This document shows, in pieces, positions 9,280-19,642 of a stretch of 64,000 nt of DNA. The stretch comes from Thauera chlorobenzoica (GTDB lineage Bacteria; Pseudomonadota; Gammaproteobacteria; Burkholderiales; Rhodocyclaceae). The notes below the pieces were generated by a model. The model was not told the origin of the DNA. It was given only the letters and a program-made list of their open reading frames with translations, and did not search any database. The stretch covers positions 558,001 to 622,000 of the forward strand of contig NZ_CP018839.1 in NCBI RefSeq assembly GCF_001922305.1, given 5' to 3'. Numbering within the stretch: the stretch's first letter is position 1; every line of letters begins with the position of its first letter. A program made the translations under genes and the position numbers.

Positions 9280-9363
9280 GTCAATTGCCGTCGATAATTG
9301 CTAGTGTCCGAAAGATTCGCCGTGCACATGCGGCGATCGAACATGATAAAACGGAGATTATCC

Positions 9364-9762
9364 ATGAACAAATCCCCCTTCCTCCTCGCCGCGGCGGTTT
9401 CGGTCCTGCTGGCCGCATGTGGTGGTTCCGATTCGGGTGCGCCTGCCGCGCCTGCTGCTGCCCCCGCGCCGGTCGCGGCCGCGCCGGCCGCTCCTGCCGC
9501 CCCGGCCAATGCCGCAGGCGAAGGGGTGTACAAGAAGGTCTGTGCCCTGTGTCACGCCGCTGGGGTGGCCGGTGCACCGATGCCGGGCAACAAGGACGAG
9601 TGGGCGCCGCGCATCGCCCAGGGCGAGGAAACGCTCTACAAGCATGCGATCGAGGGCTTCACCGGCGAGAAGGGGATGATGCCGGCACGCGGTGGCGGCA
9701 CCTCGCTGAGTGACGACGAAGTCAAAGCTGCGGTCGACTACATGGTGGCGAAGTCGAAGTAA
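9364..9762 (+). CDS. Class I c-type cytochrome lipoprotein (cytochrome c5-like)
   Basis: A 132-residue membrane-anchored monohaem cytochrome. The signal peptide ends in the lipobox LLAACGG (Cys about residue 19), followed by a roughly 30-residue Ala/Pro linker. The haem domain begins GEGVYKKVCALCHAAG (CxxCH) and carries the distal Met in KGMMPARGG; the pattern fits cytochrome c5 family proteins. It probably shuttles electrons on the periplasmic face of the inner membrane. The perfect FNR box upstream and the nos cluster just downstream (opposite strand) suggest a role in low-oxygen or denitrifying respiration, for example as donor to NosZ or a high-affinity oxidase; this is inference. Confidence 0.92.
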   Translation: MNKSPFLLAAAVSVLLAACGGSDSGAPAAPAAAPAPVAAAPAAPAAPANAAGEGVYKKVCALCHAAGVAGAPMPGNKDEWAPRIAQGEETLYKHAIEGFTGEKGMMPARGGGTSLSDDEVKAAVDYMVAKSK

Positions 9763-9870: not shown

Positions 9871-10503
9871 TCAGTGGGTGTGATGGGTGTGGTTGGCGTT
9901 GCGCAGGCCGTCGACGACTGCGGGCTCCACTTCGTCGAAGCGCAGCAGGCGGCCGCCGTGTTCGGCGATGAAGGCCTGGGCGGCGGCTGCGTCGGCGAAG
10001 GCGGGCAGGTCGGGGCCGCGCATCGGACCGCGGATGCGGGAGCCGAGGACGAAGCGTGCCGTGTGCGCATCCAGCCAGCGGCCGTCGCCGAAATCGGTCA
10101 CGTAAAGCGCGGCGCCTTCCCCGGCGTCGCGCGTCGAGCCGAAACGGCGGGGATCGGCGAGGAACATGAACAGGTCGACCGGCGAATCGAAGAAATGGGC
10201 GGCGCCGTCGGCGAAGATCAGCTGCGCCGCCCAGCGCGGGAAGCGCGCGGGGTACATGCCGCACACCGCGCAGCGGGCATCGGTCGGGATCGGGCGCGCT
10301 TCATGGATGCCGCGCCCGGAGGTGGGGTCGTAAGGGTGGGCGGAAGGCCGGGTCGCCGGCGGAACCACGCAGACATCGTCGATCGACGGCTCGAACGCGT
10401 TCGCCGCACGCTGGCCGTGCTGCCAGAACAGCGTGGCACCGGCCCCCGCCGCGAGCACGGCGCCGGCGAGCAGCAGCCTGCGCACCGGGGCGCGGCCGCT
10501 CAC
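9871..10503 (-). CDS. Second NosL-family protein with CxxCGM copper motif
   Basis: A 210-residue periplasmic-facing protein with an N-terminal membrane anchor (about residues 8-26, LLLAGAVLAAGAGATLF). The body fits the NosL family: RCAVCGMYPARFP (Cys78, Cys81, Met83) is the Cu(I)-type CxxCGM motif, and FDSPVDLFMFL and AFIAEHGGRLLRFDEV match strands also seen in the nosL product upstream. It ends in a His-rich tail (NHTHHTH), a possible extra metal site. It overlaps the preceding gene by 4 bp (ATGA), so it is the coupled last gene of the nos operon. Inferred: copper chaperone or metallation factor for NosZ or another denitrification enzyme, complementing the first NosL, which lacks the CxxC pair. 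Confidence 0.82.
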   Translation of the reverse strand: MSGRAPVRRLLLAGAVLAAGAGATLFWQHGQRAANAFEPSIDDVCVVPPATRPSAHPYDPTSGRGIHEARPIPTDARCAVCGMYPARFPRWAAQLIFADGAAHFFDSPVDLFMFLADPRRFGSTRDAGEGAALYVTDFGDGRWLDAHTARFVLGSRIRGPMRGPDLPAFADAAAAQAFIAEHGGRLLRFDEVEPAVVDGLRNANHTHHTH

Positions 10504-10874
10504 TGGCCGCCACCGCCGAGCTGCGGATCGTGCAGCAGGGCGGCGACGAGCCGGCGCAGGTTGTCCTCCGGGCGGGCGTCGGTGCGCGTGACCGGATCGG
10601 CGACGACGCTGCCGTCGGCACGGTGGAAATGGTTCGGCACTGTTGCCAGCGCGGGATGGGTCGGCGCGGTGTCGATGCCCAGTTCCACCCCCGCGGGGTC
10701 CGGGCCGCTGCGCCAGCGCAGTGAATAGGCATCGGCCGCGGCATAGCGGACAGTCAGCGCGACGTCGTTGTTCAGGTCCAGGATCAGGGCGTCCTGGGTC
10801 AGCCGCGGCGGGCAGGCGAGGGCCTCGGCGCAGTCGGCGGCGATGCGTTCGGCGAGGAAGGGATGCAGGTTCAT
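10500..10874 (-). CDS. Uncharacterised nos-operon protein, TumE/DUF6516-like
   Basis: A 124-residue soluble protein with no signal peptide, so cytoplasmic although it lies among genes for exported Nos factors. The central part (DALILDLNNDVALTVRY, then SLRWRSG) followed by GIDTAPTHPALATVPNHFHR resembles from memory the pattern of DUF6516 (TumE-type toxin) proteins: a beta core, a D-x-A-P-x-H segment, then a P-x-H-x-H segment. The C-terminal helix is NLRRLVAALL. It overlaps both neighbours by 4 bp (ATGA), pairing it tightly with the 90-residue gene upstream. The family assignment is tentative; it could also be a nos-specific accessory protein. Confidence 0.6.
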   Translation of the reverse strand: MNLHPFLAERIAADCAEALACPPRLTQDALILDLNNDVALTVRYAAADAYSLRWRSGPDPAGVELGIDTAPTHPALATVPNHFHRADGSVVADPVTRTDARPEDNLRRLVAALLHDPQLGGGGQ

Positions 10875-11143
10875 CGGCCGTTGACCTCCTGCAGGCGCTG
10901 GGCCATGGCCTGGCGTGCGGCCTGGTGCGTGTCGGTGAGGATGCGGGCGGCGAGGTAGTGCTCGTAGGCCGGGTGCTCGGCCAGTTCGCCGGCGGCGATG
11001 CGCTCGATCAGTTGTGCGGGATCGTCCGCCCCGGCGGCGGCGAGCACCGCGCGGCGGTTTTCCCGCGTCTCGTAGATCAGGCGCGCGAGCTGCTGCACTT
11101 CGGCGGCGGTGTCCGGTGAAAGGGCGTCGTAGATGGAATTCAT
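10871..11143 (-). CDS. Uncharacterised small helical protein, possible antitoxin-like partner
   Basis: A 90-residue acidic, predicted all-helical protein with no signal peptide or membrane segment. The segment GELAEHPAYEHYLAARI is the most distinctive part; similar HPAYE-x-Y-L segments occur, as I recall, in small proteins encoded just before DUF6516/TumE-like genes. The ATG at 11143 is 5 bp after the nosL stop, and the gene overlaps the next one by 4 bp, so it belongs to the nos transcript and is translationally coupled downstream. No function is known. An antitoxin-like or chaperone role is inferred only from the pairing. Confidence 0.65.
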   Translation of the reverse strand: MNSIYDALSPDTAAEVQQLARLIYETRENRRAVLAAAGADDPAQLIERIAAGELAEHPAYEHYLAARILTDTHQAARQAMAQRLQEVNGR

Positions 11144-11148
11144 GATCT

Positions 11149-11688
11149 TTACATCCTCTGGTCGTGGAGGGCGCCGCCGTCGAGGACGACCCGGTCGGGA
11201 GTAACCTCGTCGAAACGGAGGACGCTGCCGCCATGTTCGGCGGCGAAGGCTTGCGCATCGGCCTCGCGGGCGAAGGAGGCGGCGGTCGGGCCCATCGAAC
11301 CCAGGCGCTTCGAGCCGAAGACGTAGAACGCGGCCCTGGCGTCGATCCAGTGGCCCTGCGGGGCGTTCCAGTCGGCCTGGCCCATGTCCTGGACGAAGAT
11401 CGCCGCGATGGCCCGCGCCTGTTCCGGGTTCAGGTAGATGTTGAACATCTCGACGGTGTCGCAGAACCAGTCCGGCTCGGCCACGCCGGCATAGTGGATC
11501 TGCGCCTTGGGGCCGGGGTAATCGGCGAGCAGCATGCCGTCGAGGGCGCAGCTGGTGCCGCGCTCGATTTCGAGGGCGACGACCGTGGCCTTGCCGCCGT
11601 CGCCCTGGCCGCAGGCGGCGAGCAGGCCGCTCGCCGCGGCGGCGAGCAGGAAGCGGCGGCGGGAAAGGCAGCGCTGATGGGTGCACAT
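11149..11688 (-). CDS. nosL: NosL copper chaperone lipoprotein
   Basis: Membrane-anchored Cu(I) carrier for assembly of the NosZ copper sites. It has 179 residues. The N-terminus combines an SRRRFLL twin-arginine-like motif with the lipobox GLLAACG (Cys26). The metal region is TSCALDGMLL (Cys47, Met52): the second Cys of the CxxCGM version is replaced, as in one NosL subgroup. The rest (FVQDMG, WIDARAAFYVFGSK, FAAEHGGSVLRFDEV) is family-typical. It follows nosY by 33 bp, and the end of the coding region abuts the 90-residue gene, so it is mid-operon. Confidence 0.93.
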   Translation of the reverse strand: MCTHQRCLSRRRFLLAAAASGLLAACGQGDGGKATVVALEIERGTSCALDGMLLADYPGPKAQIHYAGVAEPDWFCDTVEMFNIYLNPEQARAIAAIFVQDMGQADWNAPQGHWIDARAAFYVFGSKRLGSMGPTAASFAREADAQAFAAEHGGSVLRFDEVTPDRVVLDGGALHDQRM

Positions 11689-11721: not shown

Positions 11722-12537
11722 TCAGCGGCGGAAGCGCCAGGCGGCGAGTGCGAGCGGGCCGACGATCCAGCCCGCCATCACCGCGCCGAGCAGCCCGGGG
11801 CGGGCCAGCGCCGGCGGGAACACGGTGGACAGCCCGTACAGGGTGCGCACGTCGTCGAGGCTGAAGATGTTGAGGATGCGGAACACGTCGGCCGGGTTCA
11901 GCAGCAGCGCGTAGGGCAGGAGCTCGCCGCCCCACTGCCCGCCGCTCAGCACCAGCGCGCCCAGCAGCAGCAGATCGAATACGAGCACGAAGAAGAACCA
12001 CAGCGCGATCGCCAGCCCCGAGGCGCGGGTGCGGTCGGCGGCGAACACCGACAGCATCACCGCCAGGCTGAGGAAGGCACAGCCGAGCAGCACCGAACTA
12101 GCCATGAAGCCGACATAGTGGAAGAGCGCGGCGAGGTCGAGTTGGGCGGACAGCACCAGGCCGACGAGGCCGAAGCCGGCTACGGTGGAGAAGGCCAGCG
12201 CCGCGGCGAGTCCGAGGTATTTGCCCAGCAACAGCTCGCCGCGGGTGATCGGCATCGACAGCAAGAGCTCGAGCGAGCCGCGCTCGCGCTCGCCGACGAT
12301 GGCGTCGAAGCCGAGCAGCAGCGCGATCAGCGGGATCAGGTAGATCACCAGGCTGACCAGGCTGGCGATCGTGACCTCGATCGAGCGGAAACCGACCGCG
12401 CCCTGCTGGGCCGCGCCGAAGTAGGCGATTGACAGCGCGAACGCGGTGAACACCAGCGCCACCGCCAGCACCCAGCGGTTGCGGATGCGGTCCCAGAATT
12501 CCTTGCCGGCGATGGCGGCGATCTGCGCGAACTCCAT
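11722..12537 (-). CDS. nosY: NosY ABC transporter permease
   Basis: Membrane subunit of the NosFY transporter, which works with NosD on the periplasmic side in building the CuZ site of nitrous oxide reductase. It has 271 residues with six predicted membrane helices; GKEFWDRIRNRWVL at the N-terminus and GERERGSLELLLSMPITRGE are typical of the ABC-2 permease fold. The ATG at 12537 has AAAGGAGCAGGC directly upstream. The gene begins 11 bp after nosF, so the pair is tightly linked. Confidence 0.95.
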   Translation of the reverse strand: MEFAQIAAIAGKEFWDRIRNRWVLAVALVFTAFALSIAYFGAAQQGAVGFRSIEVTIASLVSLVIYLIPLIALLLGFDAIVGERERGSLELLLSMPITRGELLLGKYLGLAAALAFSTVAGFGLVGLVLSAQLDLAALFHYVGFMASSVLLGCAFLSLAVMLSVFAADRTRASGLAIALWFFFVLVFDLLLLGALVLSGGQWGGELLPYALLLNPADVFRILNIFSLDDVRTLYGLSTVFPPALARPGLLGAVMAGWIVGPLALAAWRFRR

Positions 12538-12548
12538 GCCTGCTCCTT

Positions 12549-13499
12549 TCAGTCGGAAAAGCCGAAGAACACGTCTTCGAGCGAAGGTTCGTGGACGCTG
12601 AGATCGAGCACTGTGCCGCCCAGGCCGGCGAGCGCGGCGATCACCGCCATCTTGGCCTCGCGCCGGCACTGCACCGCGACGTGGTCGTCGCGCGCCTCGA
12701 CCGCGCCCACCGGCAGGTGGCCGAGCGCGGCGCGCACGGTCTCGAAGTCGGCCGGCGCCACGCGCACCGAGAACCACAGTGGCAGATCCATCTGCTCGCG
12801 CAGCGCCTGCACCGTGCCGCTGGCCTGGACCTTGCCCGCGGCCATGATCGCCAGGCGGTCCACGCGCTCCTGGATCTCGGCGAGGATGTGCGAGGTGATG
12901 ACGATGGTCACGCCTTCGCTCTTCAACTGGCGCAGGATCGCGTAGAAGCCGCGGATCGCCTCCGGGTCGAGGCCGGTGGTGGGCTCGTCGAGGAACAGCA
13001 GTTTCGGACTGCCGAGCAGGGCCTGGGCGAAGCCGAGGCGCTGGCGCATCCCTTTGGAGTATTCGCGGACGCGCCGGCGGGCGGCCTGCTCCAGGCCGAC
13101 GCGCTCGAGCAGGTGCAGGTTGGCGGTGGGCGGCACGCTCTTCAGGCGGGCGAAGAGCTGCAGCGTCTCGAGCCCGGTGAGGTTGTCGTAGAGGACGACG
13201 TTCTCCGGCAGGTAGCCGATCTTGCGCCGCACCGCGCGGAATTCGCCGCCGGTGCCGCCGCCGACGCGGGTGCCGTCGATGCGGATCTCGCCCGCGGTCG
13301 CGGGGATCAGGCCGAGCATCATCTTGAACAGCGTGCTCTTGCCGGCGCCGTTGTGGCCGATCAGGCCGAACAGCTCGCCGCGGCGGATTTCCAGATCGAC
13401 GCCGTCGACGGCGCGGATCGGGCCGTAGTGCTTGTGCACGCCGCGCACCGCGATCAGCGGTGCGGCGGCCTCATTGGGGGCGGGGGAAGTGTCGGCCAC
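12549..13499 (-). CDS. nosF: NosF ABC transporter ATP-binding protein
   Basis: ATPase of the NosDFY machinery, on the cytoplasmic side. It has 316 residues: Walker A GHNGAGKSTLFKM (about 48-60), Q-loop region GYLPENVVLYDNLTG, signature YSKGMRQRLGFAQ (divergent, as usual for this family), Walker B LLFLDEPTTGLDP, and the switch His of ITSHILAE. The C-terminal 80 residues form the accessory domain seen in this family. The start lies inside the end of nosD (29-bp overlap), indicating coupled translation. Confidence 0.95.
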   Translation of the reverse strand: MADTSPAPNEAAAPLIAVRGVHKHYGPIRAVDGVDLEIRRGELFGLIGHNGAGKSTLFKMMLGLIPATAGEIRIDGTRVGGGTGGEFRAVRRKIGYLPENVVLYDNLTGLETLQLFARLKSVPPTANLHLLERVGLEQAARRRVREYSKGMRQRLGFAQALLGSPKLLFLDEPTTGLDPEAIRGFYAILRQLKSEGVTIVITSHILAEIQERVDRLAIMAAGKVQASGTVQALREQMDLPLWFSVRVAPADFETVRAALGHLPVGAVEARDDHVAVQCRREAKMAVIAALAGLGGTVLDLSVHEPSLEDVFFGFSD

Positions 13500-14772
13500 G
13501 CCATTGGCTCCAGTCGGGGTTGTGCGGCAGCATCCGCGGTTTCGGGTCGACGATGCTCGGTGCGCGCAGCAGCGGGAACTGCTGGCCGACCAGGCGCAGG
13601 GTCTGCACCGCGGGGCTGGCGAGCAGCAGCTTCATCAGCGGGTGGCGCCAGGACAGGCGGTCGACGAGGTCGCTGGCCTCGTAGCGCACGTCGCCGACGC
13701 CGTCGCCGTCGCGGTCCCAGCCCAGGTAGTTGCTCCAGTAGTTGCCTGCCTGCTCGCCCCAGGGCAGGTCGCGGGCGCCGACGTAGCGCACCTGCTCGCG
13801 GTTGAGGATGAAGTCGTTGCCTTCCACTTCGTTGTTCTTCGAGCCCGCCCACAGGTGCACGCCGACGACGTTGTCGACCACGGTGTTGCCGCGCAGGGTG
13901 TTGTATTCGGCGTCGTAGATGAAGAAGCCGCGCTGGTTGCCGGCGACGACGTTGCCTTCGATGGTCGAGTCCTGGATCGTGCGCAGCATGATGCCGTGGT
14001 CGGAGTTGGCCCATGCGCGGTTGTTGCGCACGGTCAGCCGGCGCACCTCCATCAGCGCCAGGCCGCCACGGTTCATCCAGGTGTCGTTGCCTTCCCAGAT
14101 GTTGTCGTAGGCGTTCATGTAGTGCGTGCCGTAGCGGCTGTGGTGCAGGCGGTTGGCGCGGAACACGGCGTCGTGCGAAACATCGACGTAGAGCGCGTCG
14201 CGCACGAAGCTGATGTTGTTGCCGATGATCCGGGCGCGGTGGGTGTTGTAGAGCTGGATGCCGTTGCCGCGCTGCGAGGACTGGTAGTCGCGCTTGCCGG
14301 TGATCAGGTTGCCTTCGATCAGCACGTCGTTGGCCTTCTCGATCCACAGGCCGAACAGGTTGTAAGTGAGGTCGCAGTTGCGCACCACCGTGCGGTGCGA
14401 GCCGGGGAAGACGTAGATGCCCGCGTTCTGGTCGCGCAGGCTGTCGCCCGAGTCGGACACGATCAGGCCTTCGATGGTGACGTCCTCGGCGGTGATGCGG
14501 ATGGTGTCGCCCTTGAGGCCGCCCGAGATCGTCGGCCGGTCGAGTCCGCGCAGGGTCAGCGGCTGGGTGATGCGCAGGTTCTCGACGTAGCGCGCGCGCT
14601 CGATCTCGACCACGTCGCCGGGCTGGGCGCGCTCGATCGCGGCCTGGATCGACTCGCCCGCGCGCACGCGCAAGGTCGCGCCCAAGGCGTCGCCGCCGGC
14701 GACGAGGCCGAGCGCGGCAAGGAGCAGGCCGGCTGCCAGCACGCGCAGGCGCCGGCCGTGGTTCAGGGGCAT
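13471..14772 (-). CDS. nosD: NosD periplasmic copper-processing protein
   Basis: Periplasmic right-handed beta-helix protein (CASH/parallel beta-helix repeats) that partners NosFY for CuZ assembly. It has 433 residues. The signal peptide occupies about residues 1-32 (ending DALGA). Repeat rungs run from about 60 to 330, visible as recurring segments such as IEGNLITGKRDYQSS, IIGNNISFV and TIEGNVVAGNQRGFF. The conserved C-terminal part includes GEQAGNYWSNYLGWDRDGDG, a calcium-site-like Asp cluster. The gene overlaps nosF by 29 bp and starts 8 bp after the small membrane protein gene. Confidence 0.95.
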   Translation of the reverse strand: MPLNHGRRLRVLAAGLLLAALGLVAGGDALGATLRVRAGESIQAAIERAQPGDVVEIERARYVENLRITQPLTLRGLDRPTISGGLKGDTIRITAEDVTIEGLIVSDSGDSLRDQNAGIYVFPGSHRTVVRNCDLTYNLFGLWIEKANDVLIEGNLITGKRDYQSSQRGNGIQLYNTHRARIIGNNISFVRDALYVDVSHDAVFRANRLHHSRYGTHYMNAYDNIWEGNDTWMNRGGLALMEVRRLTVRNNRAWANSDHGIMLRTIQDSTIEGNVVAGNQRGFFIYDAEYNTLRGNTVVDNVVGVHLWAGSKNNEVEGNDFILNREQVRYVGARDLPWGEQAGNYWSNYLGWDRDGDGVGDVRYEASDLVDRLSWRHPLMKLLLASPAVQTLRLVGQQFPLLRAPSIVDPKPRMLPHNPDWSQWRGRHFPRPQ

Positions 14773-14780
14773 CGGCGGGC

Positions 14781-15209
14781 TCAGAGCAGCAGCAGGCCGG
14801 CCGATTTCAGCCCGATGAACAGCGCCGCGCCGATCAGCAGATTCTTGAAGCCGACGTAGCACACCATGTCCATGCGGCTGGCGCGGCGGTAGCGCCTCCC
14901 CCACCACGGGCCTTCCTTGACGTAGGGCTTGGCGCCGAGGCGGGCGAGCACTTCGAACACGCTCCAGCCGAACCACCAGCCGATGATGGCGCCGGCGCTG
15001 AGCTGGCCCATCGCCGCGAGGATCCAGGCCACGCTCGCCGCCGCGGCCAGCGCCAGGCTCGCGGCCTGCACCGCACGCTGGCGCTGGAAGCCGGTTCGAC
15101 TCCATGGCCACAGATGGTCCCAGGCCTCGGCGGCGAGCCGCTTGAGCAGGCTGCCTTCGGCTGCGTAGGGAGGCTGGACCGGTTCGGTCAACATGCGCGG
15201 ATCGACCAT
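14781..15209 (-). CDS. Small membrane protein between nosR and nosD
   Basis: A 142-residue protein with about three predicted membrane segments: around residues 46-66 (AASLALAAAASVAWILAAMG), 72-88 and 120-140 (NLLIGAALFIGLKSAGLLLL). A basic loop with KEGPWWGRRYRRASRMD lies between the last two. I do not recognise a named family. Its place between nosR and nosD, 18 bp after nosR and 8 bp before nosD, suggests a membrane component of NosR electron transfer or Nos maturation in this lineage. It carries no cysteine pairs or haem motifs, apart from a lone Cys in MVCYVGF. Confidence 0.8.
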   Translation of the reverse strand: MVDPRMLTEPVQPPYAAEGSLLKRLAAEAWDHLWPWSRTGFQRQRAVQAASLALAAAASVAWILAAMGQLSAGAIIGWWFGWSVFEVLARLGAKPYVKEGPWWGRRYRRASRMDMVCYVGFKNLLIGAALFIGLKSAGLLLL

Positions 15210-15227: not shown

Positions 15228-17411
15228 TCAGGCGTTCGGCGCCCGCGTGGGCACGGGCGTGATCGGGATGTAGTAGCCGTCGGCCCCGATCGGCGTCAGG
15301 GTCTGGCCGGACTTGGTGCGGCGCTTGCGCTCGTCGGCCAGCGGTGGGCAGACATGGTTGTCGGTGTACAGCACCATGCAGTCCAGGCACAGCATGCATT
15401 CGCGGTGGTCGATGCGGCCCTTGTCGTCGATCGCGAGCGAGCCGCAGCCCTTCGCGCAAGCCTTGCAGCTGTCGCATTCCTGCTTGCGGCGCAGACCGAA
15501 CCAGCGGAAGGTCGAAGGCATCGCCAGGGCGGCGCCGAGCGGGCACAGGTACTTGCAGAACGGGCGCTCGATGAAGATCGACAGGCCAAGCAGGCCGGCG
15601 GCGAACAGGGTGTAGGGCCAGCTGCGGTTGAACAGGCCGACGAGGAAGGTGGTCTTGAAGGGCTCGACTTCGGCGAGCTTCTCCGCCAGCCCGATCGAGA
15701 ACATCGACACCGCGAGCAGGCCGAAGAACACGCCGTACTTGACCCATTTCAGGCGGTTGTGCCATTTCATCGGCAGTGCGAACTGGAAGCGCTGCAGGCC
15801 GATCGCACGCGAGACCTTGTAGATCATCTCCGACAGCGAGCCGAACGGGCACAGCCAGCCGCAGAACAGCCCGCGGCCCCAGACGAACACGGTGACGATG
15901 ATGAAGATCCAGAACAGGAAGATGAACGGGTCGGTCAGGAACAGCTCCCACTGCCACTGGAACAGCAGCGAGTGGAACCAGGTCAGCACCTGGGTGATGG
16001 AGGGCTGGGCGAGCAGGCCGAAACCGACGAAGCCGATGCTGATGATCCAGGCGCCGTACTTGAAGGCGTTGACCGGCCACCTGTTCTTGCGCGTCGAGCG
16101 CCGGGTGAGCGTGTCGCGCTTCGCATAGACGGCGGCGACCGCCACCAGCAGCGCGGCGAACACGGCGATTTCCACCGCGCGCGTCTTCCACACCCGCACC
16201 CAGGGGGCGTCGGGTTTGTTCACCTCGGGGCGGCCGCCTTCGAGGTAGCGGTCGGCGAGCCAGTACTCGGTGTCGAAGTTCACGAAGGTGCGCGCGCCGG
16301 TCTCGCGGTCGACGCGGTTGCCGAGGAAGATGAACTTCCACGGGAAGGCGCCGGAGAAGGCCGGGGAGCGCACGATGAAGATGCCCGACTCGCTGAAGGC
16401 GGGGGCGCCGGCGGCGCTGACGCCGTAGAGGTTGAGGTAGTCGAGGTCGCGGAAGGTGAACGCGTCCTGGCCCTGGCGGATCTGCACGCGGTCGTAGATG
16501 CCGCCGCGCACGAAGCCCGAGCCCTTGAACGACTCCCGGCCGCCGCTGCGGATCACGAACAGGGCATGCTCGCCTTCGGCCAGGCGCGACATCAGCGAAC
16601 GCCAGCCGGCTTCGCCGAGGATCGCCCGGCCGATCTCGGGGTGGTTCAGGTAGCCGAACCACAACTCGATGAACGGCGTGGCGCTGCGCTCGAGGCCGAC
16701 CTGTTCGGGCCTCACCGTCAGGCGCTGGACGGCGCCTTCCTTGACCAGCGTGGCCCAGTCGAGCTGGCGGCCGGCATCGGCGAAGCGCGCCTGCGGGCGG
16801 ATGGTCGGCTCGAGGATGCCGACCTGGCGGGCGACCGCCGCGCCCGAGGTCATCATCACCTGGTTCTGGGCGATGACGGTGACGGTGGCGCCGGAAATGG
16901 CGTCCAGGCCGATGATGTCCTCTTCGGGGCGGGAGCGGCCGATCTCGATGTTGTCGCCGACGAACTTGCCCAGGTACTGCTCGTTGAACTTGATCAGGGA
17001 CGACTCGGGAATGCCGAGCAGCAGGATCGGCTCGGAGTGCTTGAGGATCTTGACGCCGACGAAGCGGCCTTCGGTGTTCATGCCGATCAGCGTGACCACC
17101 GGCTTGCCCGAGTAGGCCGGGGTGTCGGTGATGTCGGTCGACAGCATCACATAGCCGAGCAGCTTGCGCGTGCCGTTTTCTTCCGCATAGCCCTCGACGT
17201 AGCGCGGCTGGCCCTTGCGCTCGGAGAAGTGGGTGGCGCCGGGCAGGACTTCGCCGCAGGGGACGTAGTCGCACAGCGCGGGAGTCGTGCTCAGCTCCGG
17301 CGGCAGATGGGCCTCGTAGGCGCTTTGGGCGTGAACGGAGGGGGTCGCCACCGCGACGAGGGCGAGGGCGGCCGCGCAGGCGGCGCCTCGCAAGGCGGTG
17401 AACAGCTTCAT
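15228..17411 (-). CDS. nosR: NosR membrane flavo-iron-sulfur protein
   Basis: Required for nosZ expression and for electron supply to NosZ. It has 727 residues: signal peptide (about 1-28), periplasmic FMN-binding domain with the flavinylation motif SGATVTV (Thr attachment, about residue 163-169), a further periplasmic region to about 400, several membrane helices, and two cytoplasmic 4Fe-4S motifs, CDSCKACAKGC and CMLCLDCMVLYTDNHVCPP. CGWLCPFGSLSEM and CKYLCPLGAALAM are the NosR/NapH-type CxxxCP motifs. The ATG at 17411 was preferred because GGAG lies 6 nt upstream; an in-frame ATG at 17423 has no such site. An FNR-type box lies 64 bp upstream. Confidence 0.96.
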   Translation of the reverse strand: MKLFTALRGAACAAALALVAVATPSVHAQSAYEAHLPPELSTTPALCDYVPCGEVLPGATHFSERKGQPRYVEGYAEENGTRKLLGYVMLSTDITDTPAYSGKPVVTLIGMNTEGRFVGVKILKHSEPILLLGIPESSLIKFNEQYLGKFVGDNIEIGRSRPEEDIIGLDAISGATVTVIAQNQVMMTSGAAVARQVGILEPTIRPQARFADAGRQLDWATLVKEGAVQRLTVRPEQVGLERSATPFIELWFGYLNHPEIGRAILGEAGWRSLMSRLAEGEHALFVIRSGGRESFKGSGFVRGGIYDRVQIRQGQDAFTFRDLDYLNLYGVSAAGAPAFSESGIFIVRSPAFSGAFPWKFIFLGNRVDRETGARTFVNFDTEYWLADRYLEGGRPEVNKPDAPWVRVWKTRAVEIAVFAALLVAVAAVYAKRDTLTRRSTRKNRWPVNAFKYGAWIISIGFVGFGLLAQPSITQVLTWFHSLLFQWQWELFLTDPFIFLFWIFIIVTVFVWGRGLFCGWLCPFGSLSEMIYKVSRAIGLQRFQFALPMKWHNRLKWVKYGVFFGLLAVSMFSIGLAEKLAEVEPFKTTFLVGLFNRSWPYTLFAAGLLGLSIFIERPFCKYLCPLGAALAMPSTFRWFGLRRKQECDSCKACAKGCGSLAIDDKGRIDHRECMLCLDCMVLYTDNHVCPPLADERKRRTKSGQTLTPIGADGYYIPITPVPTRAPNA

Positions 17412-17439
17412 GATGCGCTCCATAAGGAAAGTATGATGG

Positions 17440-17571: not shown

Positions 17572-19512
17572 TTAGGCTTCGACGATCATGCGCGAGCGCA
17601 TTTCGAGGTGGAGGGCGTGGCAGAAGTGGGTGCAGTAGCACCAGAATACGCCCGGCTTGTCGACCTTGAAGGTGACCGACTTGGTTTCCTGCGGGTTGCA
17701 GATGAAGTTGATGTTGTACTTCGGAATGGCGAAACCGTGGGTCAGATCCTCGATCTTGTCGAGGTTGGTCATGATCAGGGTGACTTCGTCGCCGACCTTG
17801 AGCCTGAACTCGCGCGGCTCGAACGCCGGCGCCATCGAGGTGATCTTGACCGTGACCTTGTTGCCGTCGCGGAACACGCCGGCTTCCTTCGGGTCCTTGA
17901 TTGCGAGCGGGAACTCGTTGAGGTCGTAGACCTGCTTGGGCTGCAGCAGCTCGCGCTTGAAGATGATGAAGTCGTGCGGTTCGGGGCGGACCGGGTGGTC
18001 GGCCACCAGCACCATCTTCTCGCCCGAGATGTCGACCAGCTGCTCGGTCTCGGCATGCAGCGGGCCGACCGGCAGGAAGCGGTCCTTGGAGAACTTGCAA
18101 CCTACCGCCAGCCACTGGCCGTCGGCGAACATGGTTTCCGACTGCGAGGCGTTGATGTGGCCGGGCTGGTAATGGACGTCGAGGCGGTCGACGACGTACT
18201 GGGCGTTCTTGTCGCCGGCGTGGAATTTGATCGCTGCTTCCACGTTCCACTTGACGATCTGGCTGTCGAGGAACAGCGTGGTGTAGGCGTTGCCGCGGCC
18301 GTCGAAGGCGGTGTGCAGGGGGCCGAGGCCGATTTCGACTTCGGCGACGATCGCCTTGTCGAGCTCGTCGAGCTTGCCGTCGAACCACTCGAGCACTTTC
18401 GCCAGTTCGATGACGGTGCCGGTGGGCGAGAGCTTGCCGGCGCAGATGAAGTACTTGCCGTCGGGCGAGGCATTCACCCCGTGCGGGTTCTTCGGTACGG
18501 TGACGTAGGCGGTGAGCGCGGTCGCCGGGTCGGCGTTGGCGGCCTTGGTGCCGTCGACGACCGGCACCTTGGAGCTGCCGTAGGTCTTGAACTTGCCGTC
18601 CTTGACCGCCTGCTCGATGCGGGCGATGTTGAAGAACAGGCAGGCGTCGCGCTCGGCCGACATCATGTCTTCGTAGCGCGCGCCGCCTTCGGTGTTGTAC
18701 TGGTTGGTGGCGGCGAGCTTGCCGTCGAACGAGGTGGCGACGAGGTCGCAGTTGCCGTCGATCAGCACCTGCCAGCGCACTTCCATGGATTCGGCGTCGA
18801 CGCAGGAGAACAGCGTGCGGTATTTGTCCAGGCTGTCGAGGTCGCGGCCGTCGTTGGGCAGGGGGGTATGGAATTCGGCGCCGCAGAACACGCGCGTGGT
18901 GTAGTTGATCGCCGGGTCGACCGGGTCGCGCTTGTCCGGGAAGATGCCGTGGAAGCCCTGCACGTTGGGCAGTTCGGTGATCTTGTCGCAGATGAAGTAA
19001 TCGAGACGGATGCGGGCGATGCGGCTGTTGATCTTGTCGTTGATCCAGGCGTAGCGGCCGTCGTAGTTGCCGTCCTTGTACGAGGCGTGGGTGTGGTGGG
19101 TGTCGGCGACGGTGTATTTCAGGCTGCCGTCGGCCTGGGTGCCCATGACCGCCTTGGACTCGTTGGTGATGCCCCAGCCGATCAGGGGGTCGGCGTTGAA
19201 GCACGGCACGCGATGCAGTTCGCGTCCGGAAGGCAGGCCGAGGACGCGGAAGTCGCCGGTATGGCCGCCCGACCACAGGCCGTAGTAGGTGTCGAGCTCG
19301 CCCGGCTTCAGGTGGGGTTCCCGGTGCGCGGCGGCGGGAGCAGCGGCGGGGGCGGCGGGAGCGGCCGGCTTCGAGCCCGACTCGTTGTTGCAGGCCGACA
19401 GGCCGACCGACAGGCCGGCACCGGCGAGGCCGGCCAGCGCCGCGGTGTTCAGAAACTTGCGCCGGCTCGGATCGGGCATCGCCTCGGCCGTGTTCATTCT
19501 TGTTTCGTCCAT
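17572..19512 (-). CDS. nosZ: Nitrous oxide reductase, clade I (Tat-exported)
   Basis: Periplasmic copper enzyme reducing N2O to N2, the last step of denitrification. It has 646 residues. The N-terminal twin-arginine motif SRRKFLNTA marks clade I (Tat) NosZ. Beta-propeller CuZ ligands are visible as DTHHTH, GAEFHTP, NPHGVN, GPLHTAFD, QPGHINA and PEPHDF. The C-terminal cupredoxin CuA site is in DLTHGF and CYCTHFCHALHLEM. The ATG at 19512 was chosen because GGGAGC lies 9 nt upstream and the Tat peptide then starts correctly; more upstream in-frame ATGs lie in the promoter. It has its own FNR/DNR-type promoter with a leader of about 130 nt, and a terminator after the stop. Confidence 0.98.
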   Translation of the reverse strand: MDETRMNTAEAMPDPSRRKFLNTAALAGLAGAGLSVGLSACNNESGSKPAAPAAPAAAPAAAHREPHLKPGELDTYYGLWSGGHTGDFRVLGLPSGRELHRVPCFNADPLIGWGITNESKAVMGTQADGSLKYTVADTHHTHASYKDGNYDGRYAWINDKINSRIARIRLDYFICDKITELPNVQGFHGIFPDKRDPVDPAINYTTRVFCGAEFHTPLPNDGRDLDSLDKYRTLFSCVDAESMEVRWQVLIDGNCDLVATSFDGKLAATNQYNTEGGARYEDMMSAERDACLFFNIARIEQAVKDGKFKTYGSSKVPVVDGTKAANADPATALTAYVTVPKNPHGVNASPDGKYFICAGKLSPTGTVIELAKVLEWFDGKLDELDKAIVAEVEIGLGPLHTAFDGRGNAYTTLFLDSQIVKWNVEAAIKFHAGDKNAQYVVDRLDVHYQPGHINASQSETMFADGQWLAVGCKFSKDRFLPVGPLHAETEQLVDISGEKMVLVADHPVRPEPHDFIIFKRELLQPKQVYDLNEFPLAIKDPKEAGVFRDGNKVTVKITSMAPAFEPREFRLKVGDEVTLIMTNLDKIEDLTHGFAIPKYNINFICNPQETKSVTFKVDKPGVFWCYCTHFCHALHLEMRSRMIVEA

Positions 19513-19642
19513 GATTTGATTGCTCCCGTGTTCTACGTGTAATCGGTGTCTCGCCCAGGGGACAATTGCGATTTCTGCGCTCCCCGTGCCGAACGGTCCG
19601 CGCAGTGTACCTGTGGCACATTGTCCTGTGGCGTTTTGTCGC

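What the first reader, a model, noticed from the sequence alone, without database searches (positions are those of the whole stretch)
10500..11143. TumE-like toxin-antitoxin-type gene pair embedded inside the nos operon
Between nosL and a second nosL-like gene lie a 90-residue helical protein and a 124-residue protein resembling the DUF6516/TumE toxin pattern. All junctions are 4-bp overlaps or 5 bp apart, so they are locked into the nos transcript. Both lack export signals, unlike most products around them. Either a TA-like fold has been recruited to serve N2O reductase assembly, or a TA module keeps the operon from being lost. I know of no description of such a pair in nos.
Basis: inference. 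Interest (0 to 1): 0.7.

Follow-up and report, generated by a model that had tools for sequence, protein, structure and literature searches.

The report
Toxin-derived protein pair in nos operon
Inside the gene set that lets some bacteria destroy the greenhouse gas nitrous oxide sits a conserved pair of small proteins, one of them clearly related to a bacterial toxin family, that looks like a built-in part of that gene set rather than a mobile toxin system.

Summary
In detail: ORF90 (11143-10871) and ORF124 (10874-10500) lie between nosL and a second nosL, with junctions of 5, -4 and -4 bp. ORF124 belongs to the TumE (DUF6516) superfamily: 44 of 45 relatives match Pfam TumE (best 3.7e-6) and their profile matches TumE toxins at E 1e-9, although the window protein alone stays below Pfam's cut-off. 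ORF90 sits where TumA sits, but homology to TumA is only suggestive. The pair is not a mobile module: among 200 relatives it occurs in 44 of 53 genomes with a close clade I nosZ and in 1 of 147 others; nosL was seen beside it in 44 of those 45 genomes; neither protein matched 72,556 plasmid records. It is fused into one gene in five of the 45, is under purifying selection, and is absent from seven inspected clade I clusters. ORF124 keeps TumE's Tyr/Asp/Pro/His-x-His core but lacks three residues invariant in the TumE proteins compared. I read it as a domesticated, probably non-toxic cytoplasmic complex serving N2O-reductase biogenesis or its control. My literature searches found no description; nothing is bench-tested.

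The parts
10871..11143 (-). ORF90: 90-aa acidic protein without apparent export signal, partner in the TumA position
   Evidence: 44-member family; 45 of 200 relatives; three long helices in the fusion model; all 44 members net negative
10500..10874 (-). ORF124: divergent TumE (DUF6516) superfamily protein
11149..11688 (-). nosL1, upstream neighbour, 5 bp from ORF90
9871..10503 (-). nosL2, second NosL, overlaps ORF124 by 4 bp; not found in several clusters that keep the pair
11722..12549 (-). nosY (ABC permease), approximate start
12549..13499 (-). nosF (ABC ATPase)
13471..14772 (-). nosD
   Evidence: Pfam NosD 1.4e-58, TIGR04247 1.6e-133; the reference given was in a wrong frame and matched nothing
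14781..15209 (-). conserved 142-aa protein between nosR and nosD, no Pfam or NCBIfam match
15228..17423 (-). nosR
17572..19569 (-). nosZ, TAT-dependent (clade I) type, approximate start
   Evidence: TIGR04244 6e-298

Best explanation
ORF90 and ORF124 are a domesticated descendant of a TumE-TumA-type pair that has become a dedicated accessory of clade I nos operons in Thauera, Azoarcus, Thiobacillus and their relatives. SHOWN by computation: ORF124 is TumE-superfamily; the pair is tied to nos, follows nosL, is conserved, under purifying selection and fused in several lineages; ORF124 keeps the Y...D..P...P-x-H-x-H core and lacks the counterparts of R41, R84 (nearly always) and H90 of the TumE proteins compared. 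INFERRED: the two proteins form one cytoplasmic complex; ORF124 no longer acts as a toxin; the acidic complex uses the conserved Asp/His pocket to hold a ligand or protein partner and helps N2O-reductase biogenesis from the cytoplasmic side (NosF/NosY or newly made nos proteins), in step with NosL. I put about 0.8 on 'nos-dedicated and not an addiction module', about 0.7 on 'ORF124 no longer a growth-stopping toxin' and about 0.45 on 'biogenesis factor' rather than 'regulator'. The confidence given is for the full statement.
For: Superfamily: Pfam TumE matched by 44 of 45 members at E <= 0.1, best 3.7e-6; six nos-linked members exceed Pfam's cut-off among the 150 genomes searched (G153, G032, G174, G147, G017, G154); hhalign against 11 TumE proteins gives Prob 96.4, E 1.1e-9, and in a separate run with other settings the score of 48.9 was reached by 0 of 200 column shuffles, highest 14.9; AF2 pLDDT 91.9, helix-sheet-helix. 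Nos dedication: 44 of 53 genomes with a clade I nosZ of 65% identity or more have the pair, against 1 of the other 147, and that one (G020) is 77% complete with no nosZ found; NosL beside the pair in 44 of 45, the 45th (G114) has nosZ on the same contig; in the class survey 7 of 369 genomes matched ORF124, 5 of them (window included) nos-type with nosL and nosY beside the pair. No match to either protein in 72,556 plasmid records at E <= 0.01; no viral contig for ORF124 (ORF90 not searched there). Fusion: 5 of 45 genomes plus L061 encode both in one frame; the fused state needs 5 changes on the tree; AF2 of a natural fusion gives pTM 0.82, pLDDT 90.2. Changed residues: counterpart of R41 kept in 0 of 45, R84 in 3, H90 in 0; Y70 45, D86 44, P98 45, H100 45, H102 44. 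Acidity speaks weakly against RNA binding: ORF124 median pI 5.0, all 45 net negative; ORF90 5.1, all 44 net negative.
Against: No phenotype, interaction or expression data were found. The pair is dispensable: seven of the nine clade I genomes without it were inspected and lack it beside nosL (G035, G054, G073, G113, G129, G149, G195), and Cupriavidus necator H16 and Eleftheria terrae lack it. The TumE proteins compared are acidic too (median pI 5.6), so acidity is weak evidence. The catalytic residues of TumE are not given in the passages I read, so loss of R41/R84/H90 need not mean loss of activity; R53 (39 of 45) and H73 (45 of 45) might replace them. TumE's authors propose fused, cis-neutralised toxins in one subcluster, so fusion alone does not exclude a TA. 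Five changes of the fused label may include reversals, and the deep part of the tree joins long branches. The tie to nos fits regulation as well as biogenesis.
Confidence: 0.42

Rival explanations
1. Nos-dedicated regulator: the TumE-like protein still binds or cuts RNA and tunes translation or stability of nos or other mRNAs during N2O respiration, with ORF90 controlling it.
For: The one TumE toxin labelled in the published assays lowered 35S-methionine incorporation, and its authors propose a still unproven RNase activity (passages of PMC10584680). The D...P-x-H-x-H core is kept. Same gene order as TumA-TumE.
Against: Both proteins are net negative in every member; the counterparts of R41 and R84 are lost in 45 and 42 of 45. 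The nosL-ORF90 gap is 2-22 bp in 60 of 61 loci (L060 reads 116 with an uncertain start), leaving no room for an RNA element there; other sites were not examined.
Confidence: 0.25
2. A live type II toxin-antitoxin pair (ORF124 toxin, ORF90 antitoxin) that stabilises the nos operon or responds to stress.
For: TumE superfamily, partner gene upstream with a 4-bp or 1-bp overlap, weak TumA-like match of ORF90. The nearest TumE type includes proteins NCBI names toxin TumE.
Against: No plasmid match to either protein, no viral-contig match to ORF124; tied to nos; fused in several lineages; absent between nosL1 and nosL2 in G054 and G113, which are 2 and 4 bp apart and group with holders, beside a fused relative at support 81; three otherwise invariant residues changed.
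Confidence: 0.15
3. A cytoplasmic metal-binding (copper or zinc) sensor or buffer: D68, H73, H82 and H84 form a metal site.
For: D68 44/45, H73 45/45, H82 45/45, H84 44/45 in alignment A1; neighbour of the copper chaperone gene nosL.
Against: H82 and H84 are also conserved in the TumE proteins compared, so they are not a nos invention; two fused relatives (L129, L130) lose the His at the H73 place and L132/L133 are ambiguous.
Confidence: 0.1
4. A passenger pair with no role in N2O reduction, carried along by the operon.
For: Dispensable in several clusters.
Against: Purifying selection like that on nosL; same slot across several families; in-frame fusion in several lineages.
Confidence: 0.04

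Closest known systems
   Same: Significant profile match over the central sheet (Prob 96.4, E 1.1e-9); predicted helix-sheet-helix fold; Y, D, P and H-x-H core; downstream gene of an overlapping or nearly overlapping pair
   Different: Window protein below the Pfam cut-off and unmatched by NF045777; counterparts of R41, R84 (42 of 45) and H90 lost; H73 fixed in A1; found only in nos operons; no plasmid match; toxicity untested
TumA antitoxin (NCBIfam NF045776)
   Same: Small upstream partner; a stretch of ORF90 (35-67) aligns with the C-terminal part of TumA and scores above all but 1 of 300 shuffles
   Different: hhalign Prob 1.6-3.6, E 0.012-0.032; TumA not among the 13 NCBIfam families matched by any of 44 members at E <= 1; 90 aa against 76-110 in the ten TumA rows
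The other TumE type (KYRL...RYDNE.GKGDH-x-H) found elsewhere in relatives' genomes
   Same: Same Pfam family; D and H-x-H shared by inspection
   Different: No direct profile match with ORF124; separate loci, in some of the same genomes (for example G012, G016, G019, G027, G037, G065)
Known nos accessory proteins (NosR, NosD, NosF, NosY, NosL, NosX, NosC)
   Same: Encoded in the same operon, conserved position
   Different: No Pfam or NCBIfam match of ORF90 or ORF124 to these families; the passages of PMC6530538 and PMC7660919 that I read list no such proteins

Membership tests
TumE (Pfam PF20126) | Window protein reaches Pfam's curated score | tested here: not met
   15.1 bits against 23.4, E 0.023
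TumE (Pfam PF20126) | Its family belongs to the superfamily by profile | tested here: met
   44 of 45 members match at E <= 0.1, best 3.7e-6; six nos-linked relatives over the cut-off; hhalign E 1.1e-9; 0 of 200 shuffles in a run with other settings
TumE (Pfam PF20126) | Two helices packed on an antiparallel sheet of seven strands | tested here: inconclusive
   AF2 pLDDT 91.9: helix, six strands of 3 or more residues plus short ones, helix; agrees with the description, but no TumE model was superposed; no PDB or BFVD match at E <= 0.001
TumE (Pfam PF20126) | Residues invariant in the 11 TumE proteins of the nearest type | tested here: not met
   Y70, D86, P98, H100, H102 kept in 44-45 of 45; R41 0, R84 3, H90 0 of 45
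TumE (NCBIfam NF045777 equivalog) | Score over 90 bits | tested here: not met
   Window: no match; 15 of 45 members match weakly, best E 0.0066
TumE-TumA TA system | Bicistron with small partner upstream | tested here: met
   61 of 61 loci, ORF90-ORF124 overlap -4 or -1 bp in 60; L061 fused
TumE-TumA TA system | Partner homologous to TumA | tested here: inconclusive
   Prob 1.6-3.6, E 0.012-0.032; 1 of 300 shuffles as high
TumE-TumA TA system | Mobile or scattered distribution usual for TA modules (usual, not strictly defining) | tested here: not met
   No plasmid match to either protein, no viral-contig match to ORF124; pair seen only in nos clusters
TumE-TumA TA system | Toxin stops growth, partner neutralises it | not testable with these tools
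   needs a bench test

The most novel reading that the evidence does not exclude
A toxin-antitoxin pair was domesticated into an undescribed cytoplasmic two-subunit (sometimes fused) factor for biogenesis of N2O reductase, using the kept Asp/His pocket of a former translation-stopping toxin for a new ligand.
Probability: 0.4. Interest if true: 0.8.

Novelty: new variant of a known kind. Interest (0 to 1): 0.62.

Why it matters
N2O reductase is described as the only biological pathway of N2O consumption (start of the abstract of PMC11237620, listing), and the assembly of its CuZ site is described as little known (passage of PMC6530538). The accessory genes named in the passages I read are nosRDFYL, nosC and nosX; this pair would add a cytoplasmic part in denitrifiers such as Thauera, Azoarcus and Thiobacillus. 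It would also show a TumE-type toxin fold turned into part of a respiratory operon, which makes the role of the TumE pocket testable in a relative that may be non-toxic.

Tried and rejected
Fold searches of both AF2 models against the PDB and of ORF124 against BFVD gave no match at E <= 0.001. PADLOC gave nothing and PHROGs only chance-level matches. Sequence searches of solved structures gave only hits with E 0.3 or worse. The Gametogenetin match of the window protein (0.0044) was dropped: 1 of 45 members. The MukF C-terminal match of ORF90 (18 of 44 members, best 1.6e-4; 17 of 44 in NCBIfam, best 2.7e-4) was not pursued; the window protein does not show it. Direct homology of ORF124 to the other TumE type (A3) failed; the type around NF045777 only partly bridges the two (A5 against A3 Prob 48, E 1.8e-4). 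A link between NosR length and the pair was looked for and not seen. A motif scan for TumE proteins used a motif recalled wrongly and found none; reading the matched frame replaced it. A first shuffle test of ORF90 against TumA ran in a mode that gave a near-empty alignment and no signal (171 of 200 shuffles as high); the local-mode run, done after it with gappy columns removed, is. A protein search for the L148 TumE in 299 genomes of the phylum found nothing. Plasmid searches: 147 records carry nosZ-like genes, but only 5 of them at 60% identity or more, so absence of the pair there tests mobility rather than nos linkage. The C. metallidurans stretch carried no annotation and was not analysed. 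Library searches for the pair in print: nosL / nos operon / Thauera / toxin-antitoxin, TumE or DUF6516 (16), nosW, nos gene cluster with nosDFY, TumE with TumA, NosDFY with NosL, Thiobacillus denitrificans with nosL, accessory genes, nitrous oxide reductase with DUF6516 (113), nosL with toxin-antitoxin. None describes it as far as the listings show; most listed papers were not opened, and subscription journals and preprints are not held.

Full report
Observation. The minus strand carries a nos cluster in the order nosZ, nosR, a 142-aa protein, nosD, nosF, nosY, nosL1, ORF90, ORF124, nosL2. ORF90 is 11143-10871 and ORF124 10874-10500; the junctions are 5, -4 and -4 bp.

Conservation. Protein searches gave 46 of 200 relatives with a match to ORF124, a few of them weak, and 31 loci from named records, many Thauera, Azoarcus, Thiobacillus and Rhodocyclaceae MAGs. 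In 61 of 61 loci held at that point NosL, ORF90 and ORF124 are matched side by side; the two collections overlap, and 46 distinct ORF124 sequences of 110 aa or more remain. With profiles, ORF124 is found in 46 of 200 and ORF90 in 45 of 200 relatives. The 45 are the same genomes, and the two are neighbours or fused in each. The 46th ORF124 hit, G077, is a lone weak relative without the His motif. NosL beside the pair was seen in 44 of the 45; in G114 nosZ lies on the same contig.

Tie to nosZ. I counted 53 of the 200 genomes with a clade I nosZ of 65% identity or more to the window's (the threshold is mine, and G043's gene is split in two pieces of about 70%). The pair is in 44 of these 53 and in 1 of the other 147. 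The exception, G020, is 77% complete and shows no nosZ. The genomes are related, so these are not independent events. The nine clade I genomes without it are G023, G035, G054, G073, G113, G120, G129, G149 and G195. G023's contig ends in nosL1, and I did not fetch the cluster of G120, which is 52% complete; the other seven were inspected and show no match to either profile. In G054 and G113 nosL1 and nosL2 are 2 and 4 bp apart. Clusters with a more distant nosZ (G062, G163, second cluster of G061) lack it too. In the class survey 7 of 369 genomes matched ORF124: five, the window's included, are nos-type, and the four others show nosL and nosY beside the pair; G314 is a TumE pair away from nos, and G388 gave no supported frame.

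Not mobile. Neither protein matches any of 72,556 plasmid records at E <= 0.01. 147 plasmid records carry nosZ-like genes, only five at 60% identity or more. Cupriavidus necator H16 and Eleftheria terrae have betaproteobacterial nos clusters without the pair. A pattern-based scan of viral contigs with the ORF124 profile found no relative; ORF90 was not scanned there.

Fusions, losses, selection. Five of 45 genomes (G061, G070, G084, G043, G103) and the Burkholderiales locus L061 encode both parts in one open frame. On a tree of NosR, NosD, NosF and NosY (43 rows, quick method, rows left out listed under Tried and rejected) the fused state needs 5 changes, all forced by well supported branches; this reads most simply as five fusions, though reversals are not excluded. 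Absence needs 5 changes. G054 and G113 fall in a starred clade of holders, beside a fused relative at support 81. The deep part of the tree joins long branches and is not to be trusted. Median dN/dS is 0.31 (ORF90), 0.41 (ORF124), 0.35 (nosL1) and 0.36 (nosL2) over the 152 of 190 pairs, among 20 of 61 loci, with dS below 1.2 in all four genes.

What ORF124 is. Alone it scores 15.1 bits with Pfam TumE, under the cut-off of 23.4. In its family 44 of 45 members match TumE at E 0.1 or better, best 3.7e-6, and six nos-linked relatives pass the cut-off in a search of 150 genomes. In a separate run with other settings the observed score of 48.9 was reached by 0 of 200 column shuffles, whose highest was 14.9. 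It does not match the other, KYRL...RYDNE TumE type directly. AF2 gives a confident helix-sheet-helix fold that agrees with the published description of DUF6516; no solved structure or viral model resembles it at E <= 0.001, and the authors likewise report no confident PDB match.

What changed. Eight residues are invariant in the 11 TumE proteins. In the nos family five are kept (Y70 45/45, D86 44/45, P98 45/45, H100 45/45, H102 44/45) and three are not (R41 0/45, R84 3/45, H90 0/45); a neighbouring His (H73 of ORF124) is present in 45/45. R84 corresponds by motif to the Arg of RYDN, kept in 26 of 28 of the other TumE type. In the fused relatives H-x-H stays in all six, while the His at the H73 place is lost in L129 and L130 and ambiguous in L132 and L133. 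Both proteins are net negative in every member. I read this as an old pocket kept for a new use, with features expected of RNA binding weakened; the catalytic residues of TumE are not stated in the passages I read, so this is inference.

What ORF90 is. It has no convincing family of its own in Pfam or NCBIfam. It occupies the TumA position, and a stretch of it aligns with the C-terminal part of TumA, but the profile comparison is not significant (Prob 1.6-3.6, E 0.012-0.032; 1 of 300 shuffles as high). AF2 of a natural fusion shows three long helices for the ORF90 part and a pTM of 0.82 for the whole, which suggests, without an error matrix at hand, that the two halves pack together.

Mechanism. 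The best account is a domesticated complex dedicated to nos. I prefer a biogenesis role on the cytoplasmic side because the complex is acidic, sits beside nosL in 44 of the 45 relatives that have it, and has lost conserved arginines; a regulatory role remains close behind. A live addiction module fits poorly with the fusions, the absences, the lack of plasmid matches and the changed residues. None of these steps has been tested at the bench.

Literature. I read passages, not whole papers: PMC10584680 (TumE-TumA), PMC6530538 (NosL) and PMC7660919 (NosX); PMC11237620 only as the start of an abstract in a listing. Ten library searches, named under Tried and rejected, showed no description of the pair.

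Noticed in passing
window 14781-15209 (-): A conserved 142-aa protein between nosR and nosD, found in many but not all related clusters, with no Pfam or NCBIfam match; a second uncharacterised nos-linked family.
   Followed up: partly
window 9871-10503 (-): A second, diverged NosL follows the pair; several clusters that keep the pair show no match to it.
   Followed up: partly
window 9298-9762 (+): A 154-aa c-type cytochrome (Pfam Cytochrome_CBB3 1.3e-15), convergent with the end of the nos cluster.
   Followed up: partly
L143:3496-3864 (-): A lone 122-aa relative of ORF124 (profile E 1.9e-5) without the His motif and without a Pfam match, convergent with a hypF gene (TIGR00143).
   Followed up: partly
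L164 (G000:C1:421222-421341): A second, sub-threshold TumE match (17.4 bits) elsewhere in the window's genome.
   Followed up: no
L120 (G012 second nos cluster): A near relative carries a second clade I nos cluster in which no nosL and no pair were matched after nosY.
   Followed up: partly
L040-L058, L162, L163: NosR frames of about 910 aa or more in Thiobacillus-type clusters and 873-aa NosR in Cupriavidus and Eleftheria, against 731 in the window; no relation to the pair seen.
   Followed up: partly
ORF90 family A2: 18 of 44 members match the MukF C-terminal domain weakly (best 1.6e-4), the window protein does not; perhaps a helical chance match.
   Followed up: no
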